Assembly: GCA_947500825.1 (NCBI GenBank)
Contig: CANMTR010000001.1
Location: 1-64,000, forward strand
DNA length: 64,000 nt
Direction of reading: 5' to 3'
DNA from: an uncultured Paracoccaceae bacterium
GTDB lineage: Bacteria > Pseudomonadota > Alphaproteobacteria > Rhodobacterales > Rhodobacteraceae
The translations under genes were made by a program, and so were the position numbers. Each line of letters starts with the position of its first letter. Positions within the stretch are counted from its first letter, which is position 1. Shown here piece by piece: positions 738 through 17,864 of this stretch. Below the pieces are notes generated by a model. That model did no database searches, was not told the DNA's origin, and saw only the letters and a program-made list of their open reading frames with translations.

Positions 738-3700
738 TCAGGCCGGCTCAAGCGCCTTACGCGCCTGGAAGGCCGCCGCCTGCACCAATCGGCCGAAAGC
801 GGAGAGTCGTAGGCGGCCCTCGTCCGGACTATAGGTCTGCACCAGGCCCAGCATCCGCAGGTCGGGAATGACATCCTCGGCCGTGCCGTGGCCCTCGCTC
901 GCCAGCAGATCCATCATCGCCTGGTAGTCACCCGCATCGTCGACATCCTCGAGCATCGAGAGTGCCCCGCCCAGAGATGCACCCGGCACATACTGCCCCG
1001 CATCGATCGGTTCGGCGGCCCGGGCGAGGCTCTCTGCCGTCACGCGACCATGCTCGCCGATTTGCGCCTTCACGATGTCGCAGATATGCGCGGGAATCCC
1101 GCCCGTCAGGCGCAGGATCTCGGTCCTGAGCTCGCGGCTGTCGAGGCTTAGCGCCTCCACCTCCTGCAAGTAGGCCCGCAGCATCTCGTGCCCCCAGGGG
1201 ATCAGCGCCGTCGCATCGCGCTTCACAGCCAGGTCACGCAGCACGTCATCGGTCGCATCAAGCAGGAAGATCGGCCGGACATCGCCCGACTTCACCTGAC
1301 CCCAGCGCTCAGCGAAGGTGACGAGATCACTCACTTGGGCCGCGCTCGGCTTGATAAAGACCAGCTTCATCCGCTTCGAACCGCGGGCGGCCTTGACCTG
1401 CTCAATCTCGCGGCGGAAGACCTTGGCGTTCGTCACCGTCACGACGGTGATGTCCTCGACCTTCCCCCAGGCGCGGCGCGGTCCCAGAACCTGCTCGATC
1501 GCGGTCGGAACCTCCCGGAGTCCCATGACCGGCAGACCGGTCACGAACCGGCAGCCTGCCCGCGCGGGATCGAGGAGGTCGCTGATCTGGCTGTCGCTCA
1601 ACGGCGAACGCTTCATCTGCGACACGTCGACCGGGCCTGTCGCTCCCTTGGGCTCGTAGGCGCGGCGGTAGCTCGGGGCGTCATAGTCTACCTCCGGCTC
1701 GCGATCCTGGATGTTGACCAGGGCCTCGATGATATCCGGCTCCTGTCCGAGCATCTGCGCCACCTGCCGGGTTCTTAGCACGTAGTGATACTGCGAGTTC
1801 CCGGAGATCTCGATACGGCCGAGGACCCCGAGTTCGAAGAGTTCGTCGAGCAGAACCCGGAAGCCCGCCTCGTCGACCGTCTGGATGCTCGCCGGCCAGT
1901 GCTTCATTGCCTCCTCGCGGATCTCGGTCGGCGCGAGGCCGGTGCGCAGCACCCGCTCTTCGCCGAAGTCGGTCCGGATCAAGCCGAGAACGTTGGCGAT
2001 CAGCGCGTAGCGCGGGTCGAGATCGAGCGTCAGCTGGAACTTCGAGCGGATCTCGCGCCGGATCTCGTCGAATCCTTCGCCCTTGAAGATCATGTCGTCG
2101 GGGATCTTCCAGAGCGGCCCCTCGCCGAGATCCTCCTCCTGGCGGTGCAGGAACTCGAGCAGCCCCTTGCAGAAGGTCTGCACCAGCGACGGATAGTCGT
2201 TGACGTAGGCCAGGATGTTCTCGACCGCCATCTCGTTCTCGAAGGTGAAACCCGCGGCCCGCATCGGCTCGATGATGAGGCGGCGCGCCGAGGCCTTGTC
2301 CTCGTGCGTGGCGTTGAGCGGGCCGATGCAGATCGGCTCGCCGAGATGCGCCAGCGGCGAGTTCGGCTCCTTGAGCATCCGGCGCACGTTGTGCAGGCCG
2401 GCGAAGACTACCTTGAAGTTGCGGTGAGTGGCCTCCATCAGTGCCTTGAGTGGGATGAGGTTCGGATAGCCGTTGCGCGCTTCTGAGCTCATGAACCGGT
2501 CGGTCTCGTCGAGCAGCAGGATGATGCGTCGCGAGCTGTCCATCTTCAGCCAGTCGCGAATATGCCGCGTCACGCCTTCCTCGGAGGTCTCCCCGGACGG
2601 GACAACTCCGTGATCGCCGAGCATTTGCGCGATCCGCGACCAGACATTCGACGCCGGCTCCGCCCGCCCGCCGAGCGAGTTCACCTCGCGCCGCTGCACG
2701 ATGATGCCCTTGTCGGGGTTGTGGTAACGCTCCTCGACATGGCTGAGGAGCGCAGACTTGCCGAGCTGGCGGCCGCCATAGACGAGGCAGCCATCGACCT
2801 CGCGGCGGTAGATCAGGCCGATCTCCCGCTCCCGCCCGAAGAACATCTCCGGCGGCAGCCGGCCCGCGGCGGTGGTGTAGGGCTCGACGCTCCCGAACGG
2901 CAGTCCGCAATCGAAGAGCGTCTCGAGACGAGACGTCGTCGAAATCGCGATGAACGCCGTCAGCATCTCATCGATCAGGAGAGCCGGCACACCCCGGCGC
3001 CGCAATCCGCGCGCGAACTCGCGGCGCTTCTCCACCGACATCCGCTCGTTCACGATGACGATCGTCGGCACGTCCTGCTCGAGGTGATCGTCGATCTGCT
3101 CGAAGAGCACGTTGGGCCCGATGATGAGCGCCTTGTAGCGGCCATGCGCTTTGGAGCCGAACTCCGGTGGGCAGAAGAAGTCCTTAAACTGGAAGCCCAT
3201 CCGCACCTCGTGCAAGCACGCCTGCCGCACGCCCGGAAGACGCACCACGTCGTGCACCTTGTCTACCGTGAAAGTCAGCGCCTCGAGGAAGCTCGCGAGT
3301 GCCGCGGGGCGGGTGACGTCCGACTGAAGCTGGCGCGCCATCTTAAACCAAGCCGATACCAGCTCGCCAGCGGGCGCGCGTCGTTCGGGCGCAATCCGGA
3401 GCTGTTCCCCTTCGGCCTCCGCCGAGAAGGCAGCCTCGTAGGCCTCGGCCGTCGACGGCCAGTCCTCGCGCCCCGCCGCCTCAACGAAGCCGGGGAAGAA
3501 GGCTACGAAGACACGCGACTTTCGATCCCTGACCTCCCCGATGGGCCGGCCATCGCGGATCAGGGCGAGGCGGTCCTCGACCATTTCCGGCGACATCGTG
3601 TCGATTTCAACCTTGAGGCTTTCGATCTCGCGCCGCATGCCCGTCCGGTCATGCGCAATCTGTTCGAGCCGCGCGATCTGGTCGTCTTTGATCGCGTGTT

Positions 3701-6700
3701 CGACCTCCTCGATCAAGCGCTCCGCGCCTGCAATGATGTCGGGGACCTGGAAGACCTCCAGAGGTCGCAGCATAACGGCCTCCGGTTCGATGACCGCAAC
3801 CGGGCCACGCCACTGGTTGATCCAGAAGACAATCTCGTCAAGTCGATCGATTTCCCGCGTGATCTGGTCCTGGAACTTCAGGTCAATCTTAGCGAGGTCC
3901 TTGAGCTTGCGACTGACTTCGCCAACCTCATGATCGAGGGAATTGAGTCGTTCCGAACGAGCCTCAGCGACCCGTGCCATCAAGGAGATCTGGCCCTCGC
4001 CTTCCTCGCTCAACCTCAGCGCAAGGCGCTCCGCAGCGGAAAATGCGCCTGCTGCGATCTTCTCCTCAAACGAATCCTTCGGCGTGAGGATTCGGCCCGC
4101 GAGCACCGCCTCGAGCACGCGCCGGTCCTCCTGGCGCAGCTGGCCTCTTTCAGCGGTCGCCGGATTGCCCTCCAGATTGATCCGGAGTGGGTCCGGCGAT
4201 AGCGGCTGGCATCCCGCCGGCAGAAGGTCGAGCTCGTCACCCAGGGCCGCAACGAGCGTGCCGTAGGTCTGGATGTCCTGGCCGGAGAGCATCTGGTCGA
4301 GCTCGTCGATCCGGCGCAGCACCCACTCGGCCAGGGTGCGGTCGAGGCCCTCCTCCGCTTCCTCCATCTCGGCGCGCAGGCCTGCACGCGCTGCCTCGAT
4401 CTTGCTCTGGAGCGCCGATGCCCGGCGGGGAAGCTGGTCGATCTCCGAACTCTTCCGCTTGCGATCCCGCTGCGCGACGTCGCGATACCGGATCAGCAGA
4501 TCGATCCCTTCGCCGATGTTGCGATACATGTATTGCAGCGAGATCTGCGGGAAGTGCCCCTTCGAACGCGTGCCGGTGCCCCGGTTGATCTCGCGGGCGC
4601 GCGTCTCGATCGCGCTGCGATCCGCAAAGCGCTCGATTACCGCGTCGATCGCATCGAGCGACGCCTTACCTGCGAGCACGTCGTCAACCACGCGGCCGAC
4701 CTCGCCGCTGCTGACGATCTTGTTCAACACGTAGGTGGAGGGCTGGCACGGCCCGCTGCGCATCTTGGCCTGCTCGTGCCATGCCACGAGCTCGCGGCGC
4801 ACTGCGTCGAGCCGCGAGACCTCCGGCTTGCCCGCCGCCTGCGCCAGGTCATCCACCTTCGGCGCGAAGTTGTAGTCCAAGTCCTGGATGGCCTCCTGAA
4901 GCTCAGCCAGCGTAGGCCCGTAGGAGCGCAGGTTCAGATCGCCGACTATCTGCCGGATCTGAAGTTCCCGCATCAGGATCGCCGGGCGCAGCAATCCCCC
5001 GAAGAGGAGGACATTGCGGCGCTCCTCGGTCTCCGCGTCGCCTGCCTTCTCTACGGACGCCGCGTTCACCAGCGTCGAGAAGGCCTGAACGCTGGTGTCG
5101 TAGGATTCGAAGGACAGCCGCGAGGCCGCCGTCGCCCGCAAGACATCGGCGCCGAGCCGCCCCGGGTGGCCGTGCGACTCCAGTGCGCCTGAAAACCTGG
5201 CCGCGATCGCCAGGCGATCGGCGTCGATCAGCGCGCGCAGCGCCGCCTCCACATCGCCCGCCGGCAGAACTTCCACCTCGACTGGCTCCGGCTCCGACTG
5301 CACTTCGGGCTCCCGCCCGTCGTCCGCCTCGTCCCTCTCATTCTCCCCCGATTCCGCCGATGCTTCGCTCGAACCCAGGTCCGAGGCGTCTTCCGCCGAC
5401 GTCACTTCGACGCCGGTATCTTCTTCCCGAACTACGACCCCGGAAGGCAACTCCGCTTCATCCGGCACCTCGTCCGAAGCATCTGTGGGATCGTCCTCAA
5501 CCTGCCCTTCTTCCGGAACAAGATTAACGCCTTCCAGCTCCGCCGGATCGTCCTCGCGTTCGACCCGGAGTTTTTTCTCCTCCGTCCAGACGAGGATGAG
5601 ACCCAGGGTTTCTTCTATCTCGCCCTGCGTCGCGAGCGCGGCGGCATCGAGCTCCCCAAGTCGCCCTCCGAGCTCGGCGATCTCGGTGGAGAGGCGGCCG
5701 ACCTCCGTCCAGGACTTGGCTGCAAGCTTTTCCTGGGCATCCGCCTCCAGTGCGGAGATGTCACCCCTCACCGCCTCGATCTCATCGTACTGGGTGCGGA
5801 GCCGCCGCAACAGATCGGGCAGAGCCTCCATGTCAGCCGGAACGAGCGCAGCAAGCCGTGCCTCGGCCTCGCCCACTGCGTCAGACACGAACGCCCCTGC
5901 GATTGCCTCGGACGCGATCCGACGCACCGGGTCATCCTGGGTGCGGGCATCTTCGGCGAGCCTCTCCAGCTCGCCAAGAAGCGTCAGGGCGTCGTCGAGG
6001 CGCCGGGCGTCGAGCCGATCTCCCATCTCCCCAGCCGCGTCCTCCAGCGCTGCACAGGTGCGCTGCCAGGCCTCGCGAAGCGCCTCCGGGATCGGGTGCG
6101 GAGCCGGCTCTTCCTCGTCCTCCTCCGGCTCGCCTTGGGCCTGCCCTTCGTGCGCGAAGACACTGTCGGGAGGGATGTCCTCCGGTTCCTCCTCCTTTAC
6201 CTCCTCCGCCGCCTTCCGCCGCTCGCGCATCTCCTCCTTTGTATCGGCGAGCTGCACCCGTGAGCTTTCCACGAGATGTTTCAGGAAGAGGTCGAACAGG
6301 GCCTCCGAGTAGTCTTCGCCGGATGCCGACTGGTATCTCTCCAGGAGGTCGCCATAAAAATCCTCCTGATTGCACACGCGCATATTGGCGCGCGGGCCCG
6401 GCGCCCGGCTTCGCTTGTTCTTCGGAATCGTCTCCACCACCGCGAGGTTGACGAGCAGAAACGCGCCCGGCCGCTCCTCGATGTAGCTGAGAAGGTTTGC
6501 GTAAAAGCCTTCCTCGTCTCGCGGGTCGATGTCGGGGTCGTCCTCCCTGAGGATGCGGACGAGCGCCTTGCGATGACGAACCGACAGCGGGACTATGGAC
6601 TTGAGGCGCTCAAGCGCATCGGGAACATATTCGCTGATGTAGAATGGAACCTTCGCCAGCCCCTCCAAGTCACTCGTGACCGCAAGGAGCTCCGGCGTGA

Positions 6701-6764
6701 TTTCGTCGGGCATGCTCATCTGAGCGTCTTCTGTCGGTTTATCTACCATCGGCTCCCTCGTCAC
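738..6764 (-). CDS. Giant coiled-coil P-loop ATPase (STAND/AAA-like), third gene of candidate defence operon
   Basis: A 2008-residue protein. The N-terminal half is acidic and rich in predicted coiled coil, with a strongly acidic low-complexity stretch near residues 400-500. A segment ending in a PEMFFGRERE-type motif (about residue 1300) leads into a P-loop NTPase: Walker A GGRQLGKSALL near 1330-1340 and Walker B ILLLDETDRF near 1416-1425. These are followed by winged-helix-like sequence and a second alpha/beta region. The GRE...GGRQLGKSALL layout resembles STAND-type sensor ATPases of conflict systems; that is a family inference. GTG start 6764 overlaps the helicase stop as GTGA. An ATG at 6749, preceded by GAGGGAG, is an alternative start. 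It is translationally coupled to the two genes upstream. No nuclease domain was recognised. Confidence 0.85.
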   Translation of the reverse strand: MTREPMVDKPTEDAQMSMPDEITPELLAVTSDLEGLAKVPFYISEYVPDALERLKSIVPLSVRHRKALVRILREDDPDIDPRDEEGFYANLLSYIEERPGAFLLVNLAVVETIPKNKRSRAPGPRANMRVCNQEDFYGDLLERYQSASGEDYSEALFDLFLKHLVESSRVQLADTKEEMRERRKAAEEVKEEEPEDIPPDSVFAHEGQAQGEPEEDEEEPAPHPIPEALREAWQRTCAALEDAAGEMGDRLDARRLDDALTLLGELERLAEDARTQDDPVRRIASEAIAGAFVSDAVGEAEARLAALVPADMEALPDLLRRLRTQYDEIEAVRGDISALEADAQEKLAAKSWTEVGRLSTEIAELGGRLGELDAAALATQGEIEETLGLILVWTEEKKLRVEREDDPAELEGVNLVPEEGQVEDDPTDASDEVPDEAELPSGVVVREEDTGVEVTSAEDASDLGSSEASAESGENERDEADDGREPEVQSEPEPVEVEVLPAGDVEAALRALIDADRLAIAARFSGALESHGHPGRLGADVLRATAASRLSFESYDTSVQAFSTLVNAASVEKAGDAETEERRNVLLFGGLLRPAILMRELQIRQIVGDLNLRSYGPTLAELQEAIQDLDYNFAPKVDDLAQAAGKPEVSRLDAVRRELVAWHEQAKMRSGPCQPSTYVLNKIVSSGEVGRVVDDVLAGKASLDAIDAVIERFADRSAIETRAREINRGTGTRSKGHFPQISLQYMYRNIGEGIDLLIRYRDVAQRDRKRKSSEIDQLPRRASALQSKIEAARAGLRAEMEEAEEGLDRTLAEWVLRRIDELDQMLSGQDIQTYGTLVAALGDELDLLPAGCQPLSPDPLRINLEGNPATAERGQLRQEDRRVLEAVLAGRILTPKDSFEEKIAAGAFSAAERLALRLSEEGEGQISLMARVAEARSERLNSLDHEVGEVSRKLKDLAKIDLKFQDQITREIDRLDEIVFWINQWRGPVAVIEPEAVMLRPLEVFQVPDIIAGAERLIEEVEHAIKDDQIARLEQIAHDRTGMRREIESLKVEIDTMSPEMVEDRLALIRDGRPIGEVRDRKSRVFVAFFPGFVEAAGREDWPSTAEAYEAAFSAEAEGEQLRIAPERRAPAGELVSAWFKMARQLQSDVTRPAALASFLEALTFTVDKVHDVVRLPGVRQACLHEVRMGFQFKDFFCPPEFGSKAHGRYKALIIGPNVLFEQIDDHLEQDVPTIVIVNERMSVEKRREFARGLRRRGVPALLIDEMLTAFIAISTTSRLETLFDCGLPFGSVEPYTTAAGRLPPEMFFGREREIGLIYRREVDGCLVYGGRQLGKSALLSHVEERYHNPDKGIIVQRREVNSLGGRAEPASNVWSRIAQMLGDHGVVPSGETSEEGVTRHIRDWLKMDSSRRIILLLDETDRFMSSEARNGYPNLIPLKALMEATHRNFKVVFAGLHNVRRMLKEPNSPLAHLGEPICIGPLNATHEDKASARRLIIEPMRAAGFTFENEMAVENILAYVNDYPSLVQTFCKGLLEFLHRQEEDLGEGPLWKIPDDMIFKGEGFDEIRREIRSKFQLTLDLDPRYALIANVLGLIRTDFGEERVLRTGLAPTEIREEAMKHWPASIQTVDEAGFRVLLDELFELGVLGRIEISGNSQYHYVLRTRQVAQMLGQEPDIIEALVNIQDREPEVDYDAPSYRRAYEPKGATGPVDVSQMKRSPLSDSQISDLLDPARAGCRFVTGLPVMGLREVPTAIEQVLGPRRAWGKVEDITVVTVTNAKVFRREIEQVKAARGSKRMKLVFIKPSAAQVSDLVTFAERWGQVKSGDVRPIFLLDATDDVLRDLAVKRDATALIPWGHEMLRAYLQEVEALSLDSRELRTEILRLTGGIPAHICDIVKAQIGEHGRVTAESLARAAEPIDAGQYVPGASLGGALSMLEDVDDAGDYQAMMDLLASEGHGTAEDVIPDLRMLGLVQTYSPDEGRLRLSAFGRLVQAAAFQARKALEPA

Positions 6765-9700
6765 ATCCGGCCCGGCAGGGCTGCTTCACCGGACAGGACC
6801 TGCTCCACCCACTCGAGCACCGGCTTGCGCTCGAAGTCCTGCCAGTTCTTCTGGTTTGAGTAGTCGTTGAGACACCGCGTGCATGACGTCGTGCAATGCG
6901 GGTTGCTGCAATCGAGCACGCTGCGCGTCGCTGTCAGGATCGCCTTCATGGAGAACCTCGCGTCCCGCGTCAGGCGCGTCGTGTAGCCGGCACCGCCGGC
7001 CACGGAGTCGTAGAGAACCACCACCGGTGCGCCTGCCATCCTCTGGTCCGTGGCGCGCAGGTCGCGCGAGTCCGTTTCCAGCATCCGACTCACCGCAAGG
7101 CGCATCGCCTCCCGCAGCGTCTTGCGCATCCGCTCCGTCGGTTCATAGGGAACCGCGCCAGGGCCGAGCGGAAGGGCGCGGACCAGGACGGTGCGCACGT
7201 CGGTCTCGAACACATGGCCGAGATCGACCGGCCGTGCCGTTCCCTGTAACTCGCACGGCTCATCCGTCCGCGGCGCGTTGTGCTCGGGCACCGGCTGATC
7301 CTGCTGCCAACCCACGCCGTTTCCCTCCACGGGCTCGGCATGCTCGCACCAGGGACACCAGATGTAGCCGCCGCCCTTGGGCCCCTTGTTGACCGAAATG
7401 ATCCGCCCCAGCTCGGGGTCGGGCGCGTTCGACCCCGGCGCGTGGAAGGTCAGGATGCCCTCGACATCGGTGCGCTCGTAACGTGAGAACGGCGCGTTCG
7501 TCAGCAGCCGGGCGTCGTCCGTGGCGCGTAATTTCACGCGCGCCGCGCCCGGGTCCTTGCCCTGTGCCTCGGCATAGGAGGTCAGGAAGCCGCGCGGACG
7601 GATGAACTTCCTCGGCTGGTTGAGCGGCGCAAAGGGCACGCCGCATTGCGGACACTCGTCGTGCTTGTCCTCGTCGAGACGCGTCACGTCAGGATAGGAG
7701 CACTCCTCGCAGACCCGCAGCCGGCCCTGCTCGACGAACGCATCGTCGCCAGAGAACTTGTCCTTGCGCACGATCCCCCGGCTGGTCCAGACGCGGCCGC
7801 CGGCGATGACCTCGCTGCCCGGGGCGTATTCACTGATCCCGATCGCGCCGTCCCGATCGAGCTCCAGGATCGTGTTCTCGCGCGTCTGCTTCTTGCTCGA
7901 GATCACCTCGAGCGACACCGAATGAACCGGGAAGCTGTAGGTCGGGATCAAGGCCCGCCGCGACAGTTGGTCGATCAGCATCTGCTTCATGAAGCGGGAT
8001 TGCTGAGTGCGCATGAAGTCGAGCTTGCGACCGATCTTCTGATGCAGGGCGTTGTCGGTGGAGGAAATTTCGACCTGCTGCTTCATCAGGCGCTCGACTT
8101 GCTCTTGGTAGGTCTGCCAGCGCCCCTCGATCGCGTCCCGAAAGTGCGTGACGCGGCGCTGAAAAGCCTCGACGAGATCTGCCCCTGACAGGCCGATCGT
8201 CCGCAGCTCCTCGGGCAGTGCGCCGATCAGGGTATCCGCGGCCCCGCGCGACCGGCTTCCCTCCTCGCTCGCGATCCAATCTGCGAGATCGGCCTCGAAC
8301 GCCTCGCGCGCGGCGTCGTCCAGCGTGCCACCGAACACGTCGTCGAGCCGCGGCGTGCCGCTGCGGGTCATTTCCCGCAACCTGTGACCGAGATAGCCCG
8401 CGAGCATCGTTGCCATCTGGTGACGGCGGAAGAAGTTCGCGTTGTCGAGCGAGAGATACGGCACCGACGGCTTCTCGGCGAGATAATCCTCGAACTCGCG
8501 GAACTTGGCCTGATCATAGCGCGACGAGCGCGCCGTCGTCAGCACGATCGGCGCCACCTGCGCGCGGCGCCCGGCCCGGCCGGCCCGTTGCTGGTAATTG
8601 GCGATGTTGGGCGGCACGTTCTTGCAAAGCACCGCTTCGAGATCGCCAAGATCGACACCCATCTCCATCGTCGTCGTGCAGGACAGGAGGTTGATCTCGC
8701 CTTCCTTGAACTGCTGCTCGATCATGCCGCGCACCTCGGTCGAGATCGCCGCGGTATGTTCCCGCGCAATGCCGAGGAGCGGCAGCTCTCGGTAGCGCCG
8801 CACGTAGTGGTTCGCTTCCTCGAAGGCGTTGCGCTCTTCCCGCGAGATCTCGCTCAGGGCGCCGCCGCACTTGTAGGACTGGCAGCGGCCGGCAGTATCG
8901 AACTGCGTCCGGGCGCCGCATCTCTGGCAGCGATAAAGCGGCACGTCGCGCCCGTCGGAGACGACGAGGGAGTCGTCGAGCTTTAACCCGAGCCCCTTGC
9001 CGTGCCGTACGCACATGCTGCGCGCCGAGCCGACGGCCCTGAAGAAGGCCTGGATCACGTCCCGTGCGTCGACCGGAGAGAGCCCGAGGCACTCCTCGAG
9101 AAACCAGGTGAAGCGATTGCTGCGCTTCGCCGCCGGCAGGTAACCCATGACGAGGTCGCTACGCGCATTACGCTCGAGCGCGATCGCCCGGTTCTCCTGC
9201 GCGAAGGCGCTCGTCCAGATCGAGTCGTCGTCGAGCCGGATGCCATGATCGGGCGTCTTGGAGATGGCGCGGTGGCCGCGCGCGGCCTTGAGGAAGAAGC
9301 GCGCGATCGCTTCCGCATGCGGCTTGAGGCTCTCTGGCAGCTTCGATGCGACCGCGTTTGCTGCGCGGTCGAGATGCGCGTAGTCGATCGAGATCAGACC
9401 GAAGCCTTCGAGGGAGTTGCGCAGTCGCGCGAGCACCGTGAGCTCGGCCACGATGAGCCCCTTAAGCCGGATCTCCTCGTTCTCGCCCGTTTCGCGCGAA
9501 GAGGTGAGCCCTCCCGAGTAGAGCCGCAAACCTTGAGCATCGAGTCGGCGCCGCACGGCCGTCGTCAGGTTCGGCAGATCGAGCCTTCCGCCCTGCTCCA
9601 CCGTCGCCAGAATCGCGGCGCGGATGGCCTGCTCCCGCGAAGTGCGCTCGAAGAACGGCGCGAAGAACGCCGCGTCCTGCCGGTTGTCCGAAAAGGTCAG

Positions 9701-11710
9701 AAGGTTGCGCGCCTTCATCGGATGATCCTCGGACGGCTTGCGCGCCGGCAGGGCCTCAAGGAGCGCCTGCCCGCAGACCGCGGCGAAGGCGTCGTCCCCC
9801 GGGTGGATGCCGGTGATCGGCTCGGCGTAGCGTCTCGGCGCATACCCGCAGGCGAGGCACTTCTTCATGTAGAGAACCCGCTCGTCCTGGTCCTCCTCGA
9901 GCGGCGCGGGCTCCAGAACCACCGCGTTCGGCTCGTCGGTCTCGACGATCACGCCCGTTGCCGGGTCGATCGCGACCGGCGGCAGCCGCTGGTCGGTATC
10001 GACGGGCCCTCCGGTCTCCTCGTCGATCTCGGACGCCTCCGGCCCATCGACCAGCCGCAGCACCATCCGCCGCGCATTCCGCTCCATCGCGGGCTTGAGC
10101 TCGCGCTCGACATGCCAGCCCTCGATATAGGGCTCGCCGCAGTTGCGGCAGACCATCAGCTTGTAGGCCGGGCTCTCACCGTCTTCGGCAACGAAACCGC
10201 CAACCACGACCTCTGAGGCATTCTCCGCCGCCTCGGCGTCGAGGGCGACCGCCACCGTCTCAATGCTGGAGGCGATCAGGTGATACCGCGCCGGCAAGAG
10301 CGGAAACACCGACTGGTTCTCCGAGATCGCCAACACGCCGACCGAGATCAGGCCGACAAGCGCCTCCTCGGCATCCTGCGGCTCAGCCTCGGGAAAGATC
10401 GTCTTCGCCAGATCCTTGAGATGCACGGAGCCATGCTCGAGCGCGTCGGCGAGACCGCAGATCTCCTTGAGGCGGCCCAGTGTCTCGATCAACCCCTCGC
10501 CGAGGGACTTGCCCTCGTCGATCCGGAGGGGTTCGAGCCCCTCGAAGTCGCACTCCCCGTTCCAGAAGGCCGCATCGACCGTGTTGCCGGCCTTGCGCTC
10601 CTCGTGCACCAGGCTCGGGAGGCTCGCGCCCTTGATCCATACCTCGGCGGAAAGGCCGCTCGGCACCGGGGCCGGCGAAAGGCTCGGATGGCGCTTGCGT
10701 GCCGCCGTGATGACGGATGTCTCGCCTCCGAAGGACTCGCCGAAGAGGTTGCCCGCGAAGTCCGCGAGCTCCGCTTTCCGCCCGGGATCGAGCGAGGCCG
10801 AGGTGCCAACACAGCGCAGCGCGCCGGGCGCGAGCCCAAGAAAGGCCTTGAGCCGGCGCAGCAGGAAGGAGACCTCGATCGCCTGCGCGCCGGCATAGGT
10901 GTGGATCTCGTCGAGAACGAGCCACTTGAGATCCGCGTTCGACAGCAGCGCCCGGTTGCGCGGCAGGAGCAGGATGTGCTCCAGCATCGCGTAGTTCGTG
11001 ATCAGGATATGCGGCGGGTCCTTCCGCATTTCCTCCCGGCTGAGACGCCAGTTGTCCGGCACCTCGTCAAAGCCCGGGAAATCCTCCTCGAAGGCCGGGT
11101 TCTGGAGCAGCTTGCGCATCTCCTCCTCTCGCGACGCGGTCGAGGAGACCTGGCCTGTATAGCGGCCGAGCGTGATGCCGGGATCGCCCAGATCGCGAAA
11201 GAGGAGCTTGGCGATCCGCGTGAGCTGGTCGTTGGCGAGCGCGTTCAGTGGATAGACCAGGATCGCGCGCACTCCTGGCCGGCCAAAGTCTTCCTGCCTC
11301 AGGATGTCGTCGATCATCGGGTAGAGGAAGCTCTCGGTCTTGCCCGAGCCGGTGCCCGTGGCCACCAGGAAGTTACCTTCACGACGGATCGCCGCATCCT
11401 GGTGCGCGTGCAGCCGCCGCTCGAAGATCGGTCCGCCTTCGAGTGCCTGCCACTCCGGCGCCAGAACGCCCTCGCTCACGAGCTCAGCGATCGAGGCGCC
11501 CTTCTCGAAGTCCGGCAGCGTTTCGATGAAGGGGCCCTTCACGAGCTCCCGCTCCGCCACGACCCGCGTCAGCGCGGCCGCGAGGTCGGGCGCGCGCAGG
11601 GACGAGACCGGCGAAGATGTGGAAATGAAGCGTCCGAGGACGTACTCCAGGTTATCCTTGAACGCGTTCGGGTCGAGATCGCTTGTGCCGACGTTTGTCA
11701 GGTTCTTCAT
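6761..11710 (-). CDS. DEAD/DEAH-box helicase with Cys-rich DUF1998/MZB-type C-terminus
   Basis: A 1649-residue superfamily 2 helicase. Motif I ATGTGSGKTE lies at about 117-126, motif Ia YPLNALAND at about 153, motif II DEIH at 267-270, and motif VI QRAGRAGRR near 1040-1050, following an EMGVDLGDLEAV motif V. Several paired-cysteine clusters are visible (CRNCGEPY, KKCLACGY, YRCQRCG with a second pair, CEECSYP...CPQCG). The C-terminal CTTSCTRCLNDYSNQ near residue 1605 is typical of DUF1998/MZB regions. Similar helicases occur in DISARM, Druantia (DruE) and Dpd, but none of the partner genes of those systems is here. AAGGAGG precedes ATG 11710. The start overlaps the upstream stop as ATGA and its stop overlaps the ATPase start. 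Confidence 0.92.
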   Translation of the reverse strand: MKNLTNVGTSDLDPNAFKDNLEYVLGRFISTSSPVSSLRAPDLAAALTRVVAERELVKGPFIETLPDFEKGASIAELVSEGVLAPEWQALEGGPIFERRLHAHQDAAIRREGNFLVATGTGSGKTESFLYPMIDDILRQEDFGRPGVRAILVYPLNALANDQLTRIAKLLFRDLGDPGITLGRYTGQVSSTASREEEMRKLLQNPAFEEDFPGFDEVPDNWRLSREEMRKDPPHILITNYAMLEHILLLPRNRALLSNADLKWLVLDEIHTYAGAQAIEVSFLLRRLKAFLGLAPGALRCVGTSASLDPGRKAELADFAGNLFGESFGGETSVITAARKRHPSLSPAPVPSGLSAEVWIKGASLPSLVHEERKAGNTVDAAFWNGECDFEGLEPLRIDEGKSLGEGLIETLGRLKEICGLADALEHGSVHLKDLAKTIFPEAEPQDAEEALVGLISVGVLAISENQSVFPLLPARYHLIASSIETVAVALDAEAAENASEVVVGGFVAEDGESPAYKLMVCRNCGEPYIEGWHVERELKPAMERNARRMVLRLVDGPEASEIDEETGGPVDTDQRLPPVAIDPATGVIVETDEPNAVVLEPAPLEEDQDERVLYMKKCLACGYAPRRYAEPITGIHPGDDAFAAVCGQALLEALPARKPSEDHPMKARNLLTFSDNRQDAAFFAPFFERTSREQAIRAAILATVEQGGRLDLPNLTTAVRRRLDAQGLRLYSGGLTSSRETGENEEIRLKGLIVAELTVLARLRNSLEGFGLISIDYAHLDRAANAVASKLPESLKPHAEAIARFFLKAARGHRAISKTPDHGIRLDDDSIWTSAFAQENRAIALERNARSDLVMGYLPAAKRSNRFTWFLEECLGLSPVDARDVIQAFFRAVGSARSMCVRHGKGLGLKLDDSLVVSDGRDVPLYRCQRCGARTQFDTAGRCQSYKCGGALSEISREERNAFEEANHYVRRYRELPLLGIAREHTAAISTEVRGMIEQQFKEGEINLLSCTTTMEMGVDLGDLEAVLCKNVPPNIANYQQRAGRAGRRAQVAPIVLTTARSSRYDQAKFREFEDYLAEKPSVPYLSLDNANFFRRHQMATMLAGYLGHRLREMTRSGTPRLDDVFGGTLDDAAREAFEADLADWIASEEGSRSRGAADTLIGALPEELRTIGLSGADLVEAFQRRVTHFRDAIEGRWQTYQEQVERLMKQQVEISSTDNALHQKIGRKLDFMRTQQSRFMKQMLIDQLSRRALIPTYSFPVHSVSLEVISSKKQTRENTILELDRDGAIGISEYAPGSEVIAGGRVWTSRGIVRKDKFSGDDAFVEQGRLRVCEECSYPDVTRLDEDKHDECPQCGVPFAPLNQPRKFIRPRGFLTSYAEAQGKDPGAARVKLRATDDARLLTNAPFSRYERTDVEGILTFHAPGSNAPDPELGRIISVNKGPKGGGYIWCPWCEHAEPVEGNGVGWQQDQPVPEHNAPRTDEPCELQGTARPVDLGHVFETDVRTVLVRALPLGPGAVPYEPTERMRKTLREAMRLAVSRMLETDSRDLRATDQRMAGAPVVVLYDSVAGGAGYTTRLTRDARFSMKAILTATRSVLDCSNPHCTTSCTRCLNDYSNQKNWQDFERKPVLEWVEQVLSGEAALPGRM

Positions 11711-14700
11711 CGTGCCCCCTCCTTCTCCTCTTGGGCGGCACGTTCGGTAAGCGCCCAGAACAACATGAAATACGCAAAGATCTCGCCGGCGACCTGGAGG
11801 GCCAGCGACGTGACTGGCGTCACATGCGCCACTGGAAGGCCGATCCGCCGCGCGACCGCCTCATGAAACTCTCTCGCCCGCCCTGCACGAGCGGCGCGCG
11901 CAAAGGAGGACAGGTAAGCCGCCAGTCGCACGCCGATCCGGTCGGACCCGGCGGCCTCATCGAAGGTCAGCAGCTCCTCGAGGCTCGAGGCATAGACATT
12001 AAGCGCAGCCTTGAGCGTCTGACCGACGGTCTCGTGCTCGAGACAGACAAGGAAGTCGCTCGCCTGCACGTGCTGCCTGTAGGCCAGGAAGGCCTGGCGC
12101 AGTGCATCCGCACCCAACTCGGGCGGGCACGTGACGTCGCCAGCGAGGTGGTCGAGCCAGCGCGGCAGAAGATCCTCCTCCGCTGCCAGCTCCACCAGCA
12201 GATTGGGAATGGGCATGACCTGCGCCTGTGTCATCGAACCCAGGTGCCGTGCGGACGGAACATCCGCGAGCCGTGAGAAGCAGCTCGCCTCGGCGCTGAA
12301 GAGCTCGGGTGCGAGATCCAAGTCGAGAAGGTCCAGCCGAGACAGGAAGGCTCCGCCGCCGTGCAGAGGCCGGGCGAAAGCCAGCGGCAGGAGCGGCGAG
12401 TAGAAGCGACGGGCCGCGATCGTGGAGATCGCCGACCGCATCCGTTCGTCGAATTCCTCCCGCACGACGACGTCGCAGTCTGGCTGGAAGCGCGTTGCCA
12501 TCACCCGTGCAAGGACCCCCGCGGCTCCCTCGGGGCGTCCCGCAAGTGGCGCGCAATCATGCGCGATGAGCGGCAGGGCGAAGACACGCCCTCGCGAGTC
12601 CTCCAGGCGGCCGAAGAGATCGGACCCGGTCTCGCGGATCTCGATCAAGCCGAGCCCGGCCCCACCTTGCCAGGCGCTCCGATCGATCCGGATCTCCACG
12701 ACCTCGGGATCGAGACCCAGAACGGCAGCAGAAAGCCAGGATGGCGGCGCCGTATCGACCGGCGCCGCACCGAGAGAAAGGCGTGCATGGGTCCCCTCCA
12801 AGCCGCGGCTCTCGTCCACGATCTCCAGGCCGATGCCGTCGCAGGAGACCGGCAACTCGAGGACGGCGCGTATCTCCGTCTCGTCGAGTTGGATCTCAAT
12901 ACGGTGCGGCTCGATCGGCCGGGACACGCGACAGAGCAGCTCGCGTCGACGGTCGGGAAACACGAGCGCGACCTGATCGCCGGAGGGACTTTCGGGATCG
13001 ATCTGGCTTGCCGGGATCTCCCACTCCGCTTGTCCGATGAACGGCCTGCGGATCACCGCGCCGCGCACATGCAGGTCCGCATGGCGCTCGCTCGACCGCA
13101 CGATCAGGGTATCCTGCCTGTCGGCATGCCCCAGCACCACAATGCTGCCGAGCGCGACCGGCACGCTGGATCGGGTCGAGATCATGTTGCGGAAGAGGCG
13201 CGTGCCGCGCACCGGGATCTCGAAGTCCCGCCGGCGCCCATCGATCTCGAGCGACAGGATCGCGTGCCGGAAGCCGTGGCTCGGATCGATCCAGAGTCCT
13301 GCCGCATCCTGGCCCAGATGTTCACTCGTGTTGGGCAGGTAGTTCCCCGGGGCCCGTCTCATCTCGAAGCGCGCCCCGGGGTCGAAATCGTCCGTGCCGG
13401 GCCAGACGAAGAACCGGGACACGATCTCCGCTCGCGCGCCCGGGCGCGCGTCGGCTCCCTTGACCAGCAAGACGATCTCGAGCCGTCCCGGATCTGCGCT
13501 GCTCGGGAGCTCAAGAGCCTCGAACGAAAGACGGGCGTGCCCCTCCGCGTCGAAGGCCACTCCCTCGACGAACCAGGTCTCGTCGCCAAATTTCAGGCGG
13601 AGAATGCGACCGATCTCCGCCGCCTGCGCGCCGGACGTCACCACCACCTCACTCGACGAGGCATAAAGCGGAAGGGCGCCGCTGCGACCGATGATGGCTC
13701 CCTCGGCCCGGATGCCCGGGTCCGTCTCCCTCTCGAGGGTAAGGCTGCCGACATCCGTGCGCACACACGCGCCACTGTCCCCGACCTCGGCCAGCGCCAC
13801 GTGCATGTCCCCCTGCGGCACGCTCGCCATATCCTGCCCGCCGTCCTCGACCGCGAATGTGCGGGCCGAAAGCACGAAGACCTCCCGGGCCGGAACGGCC
13901 AAGCGTCCTTCCGCCCGGCGCAGGCGCTTGACCAGCCGCTGCGTGTCCATCGCGAAAACGAGAACTTCCTCGCCCTGCGGTCTGATCCAAAGCAACTTCT
14001 TCGTGCCACCGCAGCTCCAGCCGAGGGTCTCGGGCCAGGGCGTCGGGATGCGCCAGGGAACGCCCGGCCGAAGCTGCTCCGGAACGCCATGGTGGGTGAC
14101 GATCTGCTGGTGCGATGACGGCGCGGCGGCCAGCGCAAGGCCGTGCGCGGTCCACATCAGGTGCGGCTCGGAGACGAGGCGGGACGGATCGATACCGAGG
14201 CTTTCGGCACAGGTCTCGAGCCCGCTGAAGAAGACGGCGCTCGACCGGTTCGAGGGCTGCTCGCCGGCACGCCAATCGCAGAAGAGCTGGGCATAGTAGG
14301 CAGTGCTGTCGTTGGCCAGCGCCGCCTGAAGGCGGGTATAGGTCTCGATGCCATCGCGAGTTGCCGCCCTCAGCCACTGCCTCAGTTCCGAGAGATCCTC
14401 CTCCGGCGGCGGGCCGAGGCGCTGGGCGCCGCGAAGAAGGCACTCGGCGAGCCGCGCACTCTGGGCGTCCGCGACCCCGAGGTTAGAAAAGAAAAGTCCC
14501 GTTGGTTGCGACAAGTGCTGAAGCCGCAGACCGATGCAGCGGCAGGCCGCTCGATAGGCCGACTTGAAACGTTCGCGGTCGGGATGATGTGAGAGGTCGA
14601 GCGAAAGTGCCGAGCCGATGTGGTCGTAGACCGAAGGACCGTCCTCGCCATAACTCTGCGCGAGGGCATGGAGCACGCACCAGGTGGAGGTGAATGGTGC

Positions 14701-14907
14701 GGACCGGAACACGCTCTCGCACCGATGCAGGCGACCGCTGATTTCCCCTCTGACCGCCGCCACCGCCTGCCTTTTCGTCGCCTCGTCAAATTCCAGTTGA
14801 CCAAGAAACGGGGACGCAGTCTGATTGCTCCACGCCCTGCGGACAAGATCTTCAGCTTGGCTCAAATGGATATCCGGGCGCGCAGTAGCCGCGCGTGTGT
14901 AGCTCAC
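11707..14907 (-). CDS. Large protein of unknown function, first gene of candidate defence operon
   Basis: About 1066 residues from GTG 14907, which sits 10 bases after AGGAG (14918-14922); a TTG at 14928 would add seven residues but lies upstream of that ribosome site. The N-terminal ~200 residues look helical, the middle (about 250-800) is rich in alternating hydrophobic/charged beta-strand patterns, and the C-terminal ~250 residues are helical. I recognise no catalytic motif, membrane segment or signal peptide. It is the promoter-proximal gene of the operon and overlaps the helicase start by 4 bases, which argues for a dedicated partner, perhaps a specificity or scaffold subunit (inference). 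It could be a divergent DruH-like or DISARM-like component, which I cannot show from sequence. Confidence 0.8.
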   Translation of the reverse strand: MSYTRAATARPDIHLSQAEDLVRRAWSNQTASPFLGQLEFDEATKRQAVAAVRGEISGRLHRCESVFRSAPFTSTWCVLHALAQSYGEDGPSVYDHIGSALSLDLSHHPDRERFKSAYRAACRCIGLRLQHLSQPTGLFFSNLGVADAQSARLAECLLRGAQRLGPPPEEDLSELRQWLRAATRDGIETYTRLQAALANDSTAYYAQLFCDWRAGEQPSNRSSAVFFSGLETCAESLGIDPSRLVSEPHLMWTAHGLALAAAPSSHQQIVTHHGVPEQLRPGVPWRIPTPWPETLGWSCGGTKKLLWIRPQGEEVLVFAMDTQRLVKRLRRAEGRLAVPAREVFVLSARTFAVEDGGQDMASVPQGDMHVALAEVGDSGACVRTDVGSLTLERETDPGIRAEGAIIGRSGALPLYASSSEVVVTSGAQAAEIGRILRLKFGDETWFVEGVAFDAEGHARLSFEALELPSSADPGRLEIVLLVKGADARPGARAEIVSRFFVWPGTDDFDPGARFEMRRAPGNYLPNTSEHLGQDAAGLWIDPSHGFRHAILSLEIDGRRRDFEIPVRGTRLFRNMISTRSSVPVALGSIVVLGHADRQDTLIVRSSERHADLHVRGAVIRRPFIGQAEWEIPASQIDPESPSGDQVALVFPDRRRELLCRVSRPIEPHRIEIQLDETEIRAVLELPVSCDGIGLEIVDESRGLEGTHARLSLGAAPVDTAPPSWLSAAVLGLDPEVVEIRIDRSAWQGGAGLGLIEIRETGSDLFGRLEDSRGRVFALPLIAHDCAPLAGRPEGAAGVLARVMATRFQPDCDVVVREEFDERMRSAISTIAARRFYSPLLPLAFARPLHGGGAFLSRLDLLDLDLAPELFSAEASCFSRLADVPSARHLGSMTQAQVMPIPNLLVELAAEEDLLPRWLDHLAGDVTCPPELGADALRQAFLAYRQHVQASDFLVCLEHETVGQTLKAALNVYASSLEELLTFDEAAGSDRIGVRLAAYLSSFARAARAGRAREFHEAVARRIGLPVAHVTPVTSLALQVAGEIFAYFMLFWALTERAAQEEKEGAR

Positions 14908-15559
14908 GTCGCGATCACTCCTAATCAATCAAAAATATTATGGAAAGTTTGCAGAGATCGCTTGAAGAAAGTGGCGAGGAGGCAAATCTACTCGATCCTG
15001 CCTCCCGCAATATCCCGAGAAAGCATAGAATAGAGCGGGGATTGCATGCTTTTGGTTAGGCACATGGAAGTATCGCTGAAGCGGATCGATCTGTGAGAAA
15101 CGCCACCGTTGTGATCGAAGCCGAAGGCTAACCTTCTTAATGAATCCGAGATAGATGGTTGCCTCCAAGACTCACAACTGTGAGCTGTTCAACAGATGCC
15201 ATATTCACTAAGAAGATCAGGTCGGGTGCAACAGGTCAACTGCCGGGATGTCCGAGAGAATTCGTATCTTGCGCAGAGTGAAGCTGAGTCATCTCGCTGC
15301 TCGACCGTCCTTGCGAAACTCCACTCGCGGCCGAGTCGCTGCCCACATCCAAGGTCACCGGCATGGCGCATCGTGGCCAATGGGAGCGCGAGGACCGCGC
15401 GCAATGCGTAGTGATCGATAAGCTTCCGCATGCGAGCACCGCGAAGGGCGCGGCGATCCGGACCACGGATCTGACCGCAATTCCGATCAGGCCTGTTCGA
15501 CGTCGACGCGGCCGCGGGGACGGTCAAGATCATAAGCAGACGGGTCGGAAGGCGTTTTA
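14908..15559. other. Upstream region of the operon; no supported gene
   Basis: About 650 bases of comparatively AT-rich DNA. On the minus strand CATAAT lies at 14937-14942, just before the first operon gene, and could be a -10 element; the matching -35 is poor. Short frames on both strands lack ribosome sites. Between about 15420 and 15559 plausible protein-like stretches appear in successive frames broken by stops at 15472 and 15533, which may be a decayed gene leading into the ORF at 15560. Confidence 0.4.
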
Positions 15560-16616: not shown

Positions 16617-17864
16617 ATGCGTTACCTGAGCACGCGGCGAGAAATCGAAGGCGCGCTTCCGACCGTCGCCGAGCTCCTCCGGCGCAAGGAAGAGGCAGAC
16701 GCGCTCCGCGTCCTCTCGCAAGCCGAGATCGAGCTCCTCGAAACAGGTCACGACAACTGGAACGGCGGCACAGAGCTATGGACCGCCTATCTGCGCGTGC
16801 CCGTCGGCGTGTTCGTCCCGATCGAGGATCAGAGGGACAGTCTCTGCCAGACCATCTCAAAGAACCTCGAGACGGTCATCGGGAAGGATGCCGGCTTCTG
16901 GGTCAGCGTCGAGATTGCGCCGCGGCGGGCGGCCGCCCCAGGCGCCAAGACCCCGGACGGGAGGATCAGCGACCGCACCCGCGCGGCAGTTCTCGACGAG
17001 ATGCGGGCGCGGCGCACGGTCTGGTTCGGGGCGCTTGACGAGATCGGCTTCCTGAGCCGGATCTTCGATCTGACGACCATGAGGTCGCATGACAGCCGCT
17101 TCGAGACCGCCGAGGGCGACATCTGGCAGCACTGCATCAACAACGACGACTGGGATCTCGACTGGGTCTTCAGCGACCGGCGGTTTCGCCTCTATGCCGT
17201 CGAGCAGGAGACCTTCCTCAAGTTCATTGCGGAGGTCCTGCACCCTATCGTGCGCACGGATGCCGCCGAGCAAGCCCAGCTCGCGGCGGCCTTCAACGGC
17301 CACCTGCGCCGCGACGGCTGGGAGCTCGTCGAGGACGTCATCATTGATGGCCGACCGACATATGTTCCCGAGCGTAAGGTGCACGGGCTGGGCACCGCCG
17401 TTCAGCGGATCAAGGCGGTAGCCGCCTCGCTCGACTCCGACACGCTCTACGAGGACCTTCGCCGCCTCGAGCGGATCGGCGATACCGAGCCTGGTGAGGC
17501 GATCGCCCTGGCCAAGGAGATCGTCGAGAGCTGCTGCAAGCTCATCCTCGACGATCGGAAGGTCGGCTACCCCGAAAAGGCCGAGATCCCGGAGCTCCTC
17601 AAGCTGCTTCGGACCGAGATCAAGATCATGCCGGACGGGATCGACGAGAAAGCGCGGGCGGCGAACGAGATCCGGGAGGTGCTGACGAGCCTCGGGCGCA
17701 TCGCGCACTCTCTCGGGCCGATCCGGAATGCCTACGGCAAGGGGCATGGCCGCGGCCGCGACTTCCAGGGACTCGAGCCCAGGCACGCGCGCTTGGCCAT
17801 CGGCGCGGCAAGCACCTTCGTCGATTTCGTGCTCGACCGACACCTGAACCAACTGAAGACGTAG
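16617..17864 (+). CDS. Abortive-infection family protein with Abi-C-like C-terminal domain
   Basis: A 415-residue soluble protein. The C-terminal third (about 290-410) carries EIVESCCKLIL, then REVLTSLGRIAHSLGPIRNAYGKGHG and a helical ARLAIGAASTFVDFVL tail. This is the conserved pattern of the abortive-infection C-terminal domain (Abi-C) found in AbiJ-type and related proteins, whose conserved R-N...G.G.H-like segment may be catalytic. The N-terminal ~270 residues are not recognised and may be the sensor or effector part. It starts at ATG 16617, 52 bases after the microprotein gene, with only a weak ribosome site, and converges on the OLD nuclease gene. A phage-triggered growth-arrest role is a family inference. 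Confidence 0.7.
   Translation: MRYLSTRREIEGALPTVAELLRRKEEADALRVLSQAEIELLETGHDNWNGGTELWTAYLRVPVGVFVPIEDQRDSLCQTISKNLETVIGKDAGFWVSVEIAPRRAAAPGAKTPDGRISDRTRAAVLDEMRARRTVWFGALDEIGFLSRIFDLTTMRSHDSRFETAEGDIWQHCINNDDWDLDWVFSDRRFRLYAVEQETFLKFIAEVLHPIVRTDAAEQAQLAAAFNGHLRRDGWELVEDVIIDGRPTYVPERKVHGLGTAVQRIKAVAASLDSDTLYEDLRRLERIGDTEPGEAIALAKEIVESCCKLILDDRKVGYPEKAEIPELLKLLRTEIKIMPDGIDEKARAANEIREVLTSLGRIAHSLGPIRNAYGKGHGRGRDFQGLEPRHARLAIGAASTFVDFVLDRHLNQLKT

What the first reader, a model, noticed from the sequence alone, without database searches (positions are those of the whole stretch)
738..14907. Candidate undescribed three-gene defence-like operon: orphan large protein, DUF1998-type helicase, giant coiled-coil ATPase
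Three very large genes (about 1066, 1649 and 2008 residues) are translationally coupled by ATGA (11707-11710) and GTGA (6761-6764) overlaps and occupy 14 kb of an island integrated at dusA. The helicase resembles the large helicases of Druantia, DISARM and Dpd, and the ATPase resembles STAND-like sensors, but none of the marker partners of those systems (methyltransferase, PLD nuclease, DpdA-type TGT, PglZ) is visible. This looks like a multi-subunit DNA-sensing or translocating machine with no recognised nuclease. The defence function is inference from architecture and context.
Basis: partly seen in the sequence, partly recalled or inferred. Interest (0 to 1): 0.88.

Follow-up and report, generated by a model that had tools for sequence, protein, structure and literature searches.

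The report
Druantia-like defence trio with giant ATPase
Three linked bacterial genes look like a new branch of the Druantia anti-virus systems, in which the helicase lacks the possible DNA-cutting end of its nearest relatives and a giant ATPase gene is present instead.

Summary
The three genes are real and at the stated coordinates. The middle gene is a DruE helicase (PADLOC DruE1, E=4e-173), so this is a relative of Druantia. The "orphan" protein evolves fast and is predicted (AlphaFold2 pLDDT 88) with helical ends around a string of Ig-like domains. That is the published layout of DruH, the proposed sensor of Druantia III, but profiles do not link the two. The third protein is a giant coiled-coil protein with an ORC/STAND-type AAA+ ATPase.

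A scan with the helicase gave 75 loci. Twenty-two genomes besides the window's carry the same three genes in the same order, with no common fourth gene. In this clade DruE ends just after its zinc module. In 41 related loci DruE has a further ~350 residues with a PLD-like fold (39 with an FHDR-type motif), and none of these has the ATPase. Tail and ATPase thus exclude each other, but on one clade only; whether the tail was lost or gained, and whether it cuts DNA, is not shown. A homologous ATPase is fused to a pPIWI-RE protein elsewhere.

Defence function and mechanism are inferred. Integration at dusA is not supported. Verdict: a new, apparently unnamed Druantia III-like variant.

The parts
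11707..14928 (-). Gene 1 (P0003, 1073 aa; alternative GTG start at 14907): DruH-position protein, likely phage sensor
   Evidence: No Pfam, PADLOC or NCBIfam hit at E<=1. AF2 pLDDT 88 with helical ends and an Ig-like beta string; Foldseek finds Ig-like strings. A family member is found in 70 of the 75 loci.
14197..14871 (-). N-terminal helical region of gene 1 (residues 20-244)
   Evidence: AF2 secondary structure
12565..14163 (-). String of Ig/FN3-like beta-sandwich domains of gene 1 (residues 256-788)
   Evidence: AF2, Foldseek
11713..12534 (-). C-terminal helical region of gene 1 (residues 799-1072)
   Evidence: AF2
6761..11710 (-). Gene 2 (P0002, 1649 aa): DruE-family (YprA-like SF2) helicase without a C-terminal tail domain
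   Evidence: PADLOC DruE1 4e-173; PDB helicase chain 9tu7_Y 1.2e-58 (that it is DruE is inferred from its name and from the neighbouring entry 9tud, called DruH); 25 residues from position 1625 to the end
11330..11362 (-). Walker A of the helicase (residues 117-127)
   Evidence: Translation; invariant columns
10901..10912 (-). DEIH box of the helicase (residues 267-270)
   Evidence: Translation
6869..7114 (-). DUF1998/MZB zinc module of the helicase (residues 1533-1614)
   Evidence: Pfam MZB
738..6764 (-). Gene 3 (P0001, 2008 aa): giant coiled-coil ORC/STAND-type AAA+ ATPase
   Evidence: Pfam AAA_22 1.3e-6; AF2 of residues 1060-2008 pLDDT 76; Foldseek ORC/Cdc6, CED-4, TnsC, NRC
2742..2780 (-). 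Walker A region of the ATPase, YGGRQLGKSALL (residues 1329-1341)
   Evidence: Translation; conserved
2499..2525 (-). Walker B region of the ATPase (residues 1414-1422)
   Evidence: Translation; D1419 and E1420 conserved

Best explanation
This is a Druantia III-like anti-phage system in which the helicase DruE has no C-terminal PLD-like tail and the operon carries a third gene, a giant ORC/STAND-type AAA+ ATPase, in its stead. Shown: the three genes form one heritable unit; gene 2 is DruE; gene 1 sits where DruH sits and is predicted with the same order of helical, Ig-like and helical parts; the PLD-like tail and the ATPase gene exclude each other among the relatives that have gene 1. Inferred: gene 1 senses a phage protein through its fast-changing Ig-like string; this licenses DruE to load on 3'-tailed or forked phage DNA; the ATPase serves the output step, by oligomerising on DruE-held DNA through its AAA+ core and coiled coils and so blocking phage replication (or by bringing in a host nuclease, or killing the cell). 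That the tail of the relatives is a nuclease, and that it was lost here rather than gained there, is also inference.
For: Gene 2 is DruE. Twenty-two other genomes have genes 1-2-3 in the same order, with frames (from their first possible start) overlapping or within 73 bp in each. No ORF >=120 aa recurs in more than two of the 22 flanks except a resolvase-like one in 4. Of 69 gene-1-type helicase rows, 23 short-tailed have the ATPase (window included), 5 short-tailed lack it, 41 long-tailed lack it; 29 of the 41 have at least 6 kb of DNA downstream. The short/ATPase rows lie in one clade of 24 (SH-aLRT 99), 23 with the ATPase. The long tail is PLD-like: MITD1 2ymb E=4e-4, Pfam MIT_C 6.7e-5 in one of 7 tails scanned, FHDR-type motif in 39 of 41. 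No ORF of a trio locus matches the tail profile. Pairwise identities of the three proteins run in parallel (Spearman 0.95-0.97, 231 pairs) and gene 1 is less conserved than DruE in 231 of 231, as published for DruH against DruE (PMC13192584 section 13). Window neighbours are defence genes: AbiJ/Abi_C and an OLD-like AAA-TOPRIM protein.
Against: No profile link between gene 1 and DruH: hhalign E 0.11-0.12 full length (reversed control 0.37), N-terminal part 0.065 (0.51), beta part 0.055 (0.053), C-terminal part 0.69 (0.43). Foldseek finds only generic Ig strings at high rmsd. No profile link either between the PLD-like tail and the tails of three canonical-type DruE: E 0.21 (reversed 0.66), while a positive control gave 2e-29; those tails lack the FHDR motif, and the tail profile does not find the solved DruE. 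So loss of the published DruE nuclease is not shown, and the unrooted tree cannot tell loss from gain. The exclusion rests on one clade, i.e. one event; L068 (short, no ATPase, ~10 kb downstream) and L040 (short, inside the long clade, no ATPase) break the rule. No defence assay exists. The N-terminal half of the ATPase was not modelled and could hide an enzyme.
Confidence: 0.55

Rival explanations
1. The ATPase, not gene 1, is the sensor: it works like an Avs/STAND receptor whose variable N-terminal half recognises a phage product, and gene 1 with DruE are its downstream DNA effector.
For: Foldseek of residues 1060-2008 hits ORC/Cdc6, CED-4, plant NRC and, lower (rank 38, E 2e-3), Avs3. The first 500 residues are the least conserved part measured (median identity 27%).
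Against: The variable half reads as coiled coil and acidic low-complexity sequence rather than a repeat sensor (my reading). Sensing by the partner of DruE has published support. The gene 1 family occurs with and without the ATPase.
Confidence: 0.2
2. An ordinary but divergent Druantia type III-like pair (gene 1-DruE) with an ATPase passenger that has its own separate function.
For: DruE with no nuclease is already reported as most frequent in a 'Druantia Type III-like' branch (PMC12458937). In Methylocystis a related ATPase lies upstream of a true DruH-DruE pair, with a small gene between. L068 has gene 1 and short DruE without the ATPase.
Against: Same order in 22 other genomes with tight coupling, parallel divergence, absence from the 41 long-tailed loci.
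Confidence: 0.15
3. A divergent Druantia type II/IV (DruE with DruF and DruL, or with DruG and DruM).
For: Type IV is also a three-gene set with one unannotated protein, DruL (PMC8565338).
Against: No PADLOC model of such a name appears for P0001 or P0003 at E<=1 (HMMER's filters drop most matches above ~0.1). The DruF4 model is 692 positions long and hits another contig of this genome, next to a second DruE, not P0001. DruE4 scores 1.6e-99 against 4e-173 for DruE1.
Confidence: 0.04

Closest known systems
Druantia type III (DruH-DruE)
   Same: DruE helicase; large upstream partner of ~1.0-1.17 k residues with helical ends and Ig-like centre; upstream partner evolves faster than DruE
   Different: No PADLOC DruH match, no significant profile link; DruE lacks any C-terminal domain where type III has PLDi/PLDa; extra 2000-residue ATPase gene
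'Druantia Type III-like' / III-B branch of PMC12458937
   Same: DruE often without any nuclease domain
   Different: The main text has the word ATPase once, in the reference list, so no ATPase partner is described there; supplementary tables were not readable here, and the same branch may be meant
Gene 1 + long DruE systems (41 rows here; gene 1 unknown to PADLOC in the relatives scanned)
   Same: Homologous gene 1 and DruE
   Different: DruE carries a ~350-residue PLD-like tail; no ATPase gene
pPIWI-RE three-gene islands
   Same: A homologous giant ATPase (C-part 28% identity to P0001) is fused to the pPIWI-RE protein in Azospirillum, beside pPIWI_RE_REase and pPIWI_RE_Z genes
   Different: No DruE or gene 1 hit in that stretch; RNaseH/PIWI and REase are present
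STAND/ORC-type ATPases (CED-4, NRC, Avs, TnsC, ORC/Cdc6)
   Same: AAA+ core with winged helix by Foldseek
   Different: Long coiled-coil N-terminal half; partner of a helicase; no recognised effector domain

Membership tests
Druantia (any type) | DruE helicase | tested here: met
   PADLOC DruE1 4e-173, DruE3 8e-159 for P0002
Druantia type III | DruH by sequence | tested here: not met
   No PADLOC DruH hit for P0003, P0004, P0008, P0009 or 7 further relatives; hhalign of the family against 8 DruH not significant
Druantia type III | DruH-like fold: helical ends flanking three Ig-like domains | tested here: inconclusive
   Same order of segments in the AF2 model as in the text on DruH; no direct superposition, 9tud is not among the 50 Foldseek rows shown
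Druantia type III | PLD nuclease domains at the C-terminus of DruE | tested here: not met
   25 residues from position 1625 to the end, no HKD or FHDR motif
Druantia type IV / II | DruF with DruL, or with DruG and DruM | tested here: not met
   No such PADLOC name among the hits of P0001 or P0003 at E<=1; that the library holds DruL, DruG and DruM models is recalled, only DruF4 was seen by name
Druantia type I | DruA-DruD beside DruE | tested here: not met
   P0001 and P0003 hit no Dru model; beyond the three genes only a resolvase-like ORF recurs in more than two of the 22 trio loci
DISARM / ARMADA | PglX-like methyltransferase and BrxHII-like helicase partners (DISARM also DrmC PLD) | tested here: not met
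   Right-hand neighbours scanned are DUF6338, AbiJ/Abi_C, OLD-like AAA; left side lies beyond the contig. DrmA scores 1e-15 against 4e-173 for DruE
Dpd / BRIGADE | DpdA-type TGT and deazaguanine genes | tested here: inconclusive
   Not among the window neighbours scanned, but the left side is not visible; DpdJ only 2e-27
Anti-phage defence system | Phage protection in vivo | not testable with these tools
   -

The most novel reading that the evidence does not exclude
The giant ORC/STAND ATPase is a portable defence module without a nuclease that is plugged into different DNA-recognising machines (in operon with a tail-less DruE, fused to pPIWI-RE, beside small possibly HEPN-like proteins). In the Druantia branch it stands for the output step that a PLD-type nuclease serves elsewhere, so that immunity is exerted by an ATPase assembly on phage DNA instead of cutting.
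Probability: 0.25. Interest if true: 0.82.

Novelty: new variant of a known kind. Interest (0 to 1): 0.6.

Why it matters
Druantia III has just been explained as a sensor (DruH) plus a helicase-nuclease (DruE). Here nature offers a DruE that ends before any nuclease could begin, in 23 of 24 rows of its clade beside a giant ATPase that the tailed relatives lack. This makes a clean question testable: what does a Druantia helicase do when it cannot cut, and can an ORC/STAND-type ATPase be the output? If the ATPase is a module shared with pPIWI-RE systems, it would connect two defence families not linked in the papers read here. Gene 1 and the ATPase are also marker families that the PADLOC v2.0.0 search did not recognise.

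Tried and rejected
Integration at dusA: rejected, Dus genes are on other contigs. Druantia IV reading: rejected. Homology of gene 1 to DruH by sequence: tried with PADLOC, a PDB profile search (no hit) and hhalign with reversed controls; not shown. Homology of the PLD-like tail to canonical DruE tails: tried, not shown; an earlier wording of mine, that this clade 'lost' the DruE nuclease, was withdrawn for that reason and the confidence lowered from 0.60 to 0.55, the novel case from 0.30 to 0.25, and the passenger rival raised from 0.12 to 0.15. Phage baseplate J-like similarity of gene 1, as reported for DruH: the viral fold search gave generic Ig-like strings, one low row being a host-specificity protein J, so neither confirmed nor excluded. 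Single-sequence scans with gene 1 found nothing in genome contigs or viral contigs; the helicase profile was needed. A conserved fourth gene: none found. The HEPN label of the small partner in Thiodictyon and Salinibacter is below Pfam's cut-off (E 0.017 and 0.03) and is only a hint. P0007, the ATPase of G019, has a weak PADLOC hit PDC-M57B (0.0054 over 41 residues), not followed. A Fisher test (8e-14) ignores relatedness; the tree shows one clade, so I do not use it as evidence of many events.

Rows dropped before counts: L003 (same place as L069, judged by equal contig length and coordinates); four distant helicases (L008, L032 second copy, L066 second copy, L087 second copy) before the 69-row count; helicase ORFs of 1500 aa or less (for example L013/L049, L046, L052, the split L060 and L083) were not in the alignment. 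Of the five short rows without ATPase, L042 ends inside the helicase at a contig end, L030 has 445 bp left, L081 is split and its PLD-like tail lies in the next ORF, and L040 and L068 are real exceptions. The scan kept the best 80 of 99 relatives. L016 was left out (short ATPase ORF). Of nine DruH-bearing loci, L108 was left out of A8 because its gene is cut.
Full report
What is there. Three ORFs on the minus strand overlap by four bases each: gene 1 (P0003) 11707-14928, 1073 aa; gene 2 (P0002) 6761-11710, 1649 aa; gene 3 (P0001) 738-6764, 2008 aa. They lie at the very start of a 494-kb contig, so the far end of the island is not visible. On the other side lie a DUF6338 gene, an AbiJ/Abi_C abortive-infection gene (16617-17864) and an OLD-like AAA-TOPRIM gene (18027-20099), then TldD/PmbA and other housekeeping genes. 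Neither of the two Dus genes found in this genome is on this contig.

Gene 2 is DruE. PADLOC gives DruE1 at 4e-173 and DruE3 at 8e-159, against 2e-27 for DpdJ and 1e-15 for DrmA. The best solved relative is a 2108-residue helicase chain, 9tu7_Y (1.2e-58), which I take to be DruE because the nearby entry 9tud is named DruH. The helicase core and the MZB/DUF1998 module are intact, but only 25 residues follow from position 1625 to the end.

Genes 1 and 3 have no family. Gene 1 has no Pfam, PADLOC or NCBIfam hit at E<=1 and no PDB sequence relative. Gene 3 has AAA_22 over its cut-off and only sub-threshold or weak hits besides. A search with gene 1 found it in 2 of 60 relatives (one is the window's own genome) and, with a two-row profile, in 3 of 385 genomes of the class (again one the own genome). 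Scans of genome contigs and viral contigs with gene 1 alone found none.

The trio is a unit. A scan of genome contigs with the helicase profile found 99 relatives, of which the best 80 were kept as 75 loci. Profiles of the three families, iterated over the ORFs of these loci, find gene 1 in 70 of the 75; of the other five, four have their helicase at or near a contig end and L046 holds only a helicase fragment. Twenty-two genomes besides the window's have gene 1, DruE and the ATPase in the same order, with frames overlapping or within 73 bp (L003 and L069 are one place). By record title they are mainly Rhodobacterales with some Rhizobiales; one record labelled Chloroflexi is a near copy of the Salipiger locus on a very short branch and is probably misbinned. 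In L016 the ATPase ORF has only 1032 aa. Degenerate, IS-interrupted copies of genes 1 and 3 lie on a Sinorhizobium medicae plasmid. Apart from a resolvase-like ORF in 4 of the 22 loci, no ORF of 120 aa or more recurs in more than two flanks. In 21 loci plus the window the pairwise identities of the three proteins run in parallel (Spearman 0.95-0.97, 231 pairs); medians are 47% for gene 1, 70% for DruE, 46% for the ATPase (70% in its ATPase core, 27% in its first 500 residues).

A PLD-like tail and the ATPase exclude each other. Of 69 gene-1-type helicase rows, 41 carry a tail of about 350 residues and have no ATPase in the locus (29 of them with at least 6 kb downstream); 28 have a short tail, 23 of them (window included) with the ATPase. 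Of the five others three are cut or split and two (L040, L068) are real exceptions. On the tree the short/ATPase rows lie in one clade of 24 (SH-aLRT 99), with L068 the exception inside it, so this is one event and not a repeated one. The tree is of the quick kind, some branches are long, and it is not rooted by the data, so it cannot say whether the tail was lost or gained. The tail is PLD-like: its profile (19 tails) matches the MIT_C domain of MITD1 (2ymb, 4e-4), which Pfam calls phospholipase D-like; one of 7 tails scanned reaches MIT_C at 6.7e-5, another 0.09, and five give no PLD family; an FHDR-type motif is in 39 of 41 tails.

Limits of that point. MITD1 is not known to me as a nuclease (recalled), so that this tail cuts DNA is inferred from the PLD nuclease reported at the same place in DruE (PMC13192584 section 9). 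Against it: the tail profile does not find the solved DruE among PDB chains at E<=10, the tails of three canonical-type DruE lack the FHDR motif, and hhalign does not link the two kinds of tail (0.21, reversed control 0.66; a left-out member of the family gave 2e-29). No ORF of any trio locus matches the tail profile, and the two PLD-type motifs are absent from the window proteins.

Gene 1 compared with DruH. The AF2 model (65 sequences, mean pLDDT 88.4) has a helical N-terminal region (20-244), a string of beta-sandwich domains (256-788) and a helical C-terminal region (799-1072). The text on DruH describes helical N- and C-terminal regions and Ig-like domains at 257-464, 465-631 and 632-748. 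Position in the operon, size and faster evolution also agree. But no PADLOC DruH model hits it or the ten relatives scanned, its family profile finds no PDB chain at E<=10 and profile comparison with eight DruH is not significant, the beta and C-terminal parts being no better than reversed controls. Foldseek against PDB and viral models gives Ig-like strings at high rmsd; DruH 9tud was not among the 50 rows shown. I therefore say it is built and placed like DruH and leave membership open.

Gene 3. The AF2 model of residues 1060-2008 (22 sequences, pLDDT 76) hits ORC/Cdc6, CED-4, NRC, TnsC and, lower, Avs3: an initiator/STAND-type AAA+ ATPase with winged helix. The region after it, with a TGGIP motif, looks like a second, degenerate copy (my reading, not tested). 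The N-terminal half was not modelled. Relatives of the ATPase occur in 27 plasmid records, none covering 80% of the query. In Azospirillum it is the C-terminal part of a 3256-residue pPIWI-RE protein beside pPIWI_RE_REase and pPIWI_RE_Z genes. Microvirga and Bradyrhizobium hits carry the same 'RNaseH domain' name but were not scanned. In Thiodictyon and Salinibacter it stands with a ~380-residue protein with a sub-threshold HEPN_Swt1 hit. In Methylocystis it lies upstream of a true DruH-DruE pair. A profile search found the ATPase core in 9 of 299 genomes of the phylum, own genome included. A term search in the 2013 pPIWI-RE paper finds no ATPase, AAA+ or coiled-coil in its text (passages only).

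Literature. PMC12458937 (abstract, results parts 1 and 2 of 3, figure legends, term hits) reports a Druantia III-like branch whose helicases most often lack a nuclease; the word ATPase occurs once, in the reference list. PMC13192584 (abstract, sections 9 and 13) gives DruH as likely sensor and DruE as helicase-nuclease, and found no stable DruH-DruE complex. PMC13316683 (passages) reports that DruH and DruE must interact and that a minor tail protein activates the system. PMC8565338 (passages) defines Druantia IV. The rows listed by paper searches (129 and 141 showed 15 of 37 and 12 of 212) hold no title or abstract opening that describes this trio, and search 109 for pPIWI-RE with ATPase and defense found no paper; subscription journals and the supplements are not covered.

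Conclusion. I file the operon as a new, apparently unnamed Druantia III-like variant: DruE without a tail domain, a DruH-like but unproven sensor, and a giant ORC/STAND ATPase where related systems have a PLD-like tail. Defence and mechanism are inferred.

Noticed in passing
window 16617-17864 (+) and 18027-20099 (-): AbiJ_NTD3/Abi_C abortive-infection gene (1.1e-56) and an OLD-like AAA-TOPRIM gene beside the trio: a defence island.
   Followed up: partly
G000 contig C22, 8573-16850 (+): The same genome has a second DruE (1851-aa frame) next to a DruF4-like protein (3.6e-30), i.e. a separate Druantia II/IV-type locus.
   Followed up: no
L007 7128-16898 (Azospirillum oryzae plasmid): A 3256-residue protein: pPIWI-RE (X, MID and RNaseH domains) fused to the giant ATPase, with the REase/Y and Z genes upstream.
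   Followed up: partly
L005 10605-17878, L006 10764-17683: Giant ATPase followed within 3 bp by a ~380-residue protein with a weak HEPN_Swt1 match; a possible two-gene system.
   Followed up: no
L115 6614-15159 (Euzebya plasmid), L112 5698-13211 (Agrobacterium plasmid): ATPase homologues followed directly by large unannotated partners (895 and 529 aa) with different weak Pfam hits.
   Followed up: no
L003 1311-6167 (-), G019 (probably the Loktanella contig of L069): A 1618-residue protein on the other strand beside the trio; its start resembles a GHKL/sacsin-type ATPase and its end a DUF3883-type domain (recalled labels, not scanned).
   Followed up: no
L040 10001-14941: A DruE inside the long-tail clade without the PLD-like tail and without an ATPase, followed by genes that read like an HTH regulator and a PIN toxin (my reading).
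   Followed up: no
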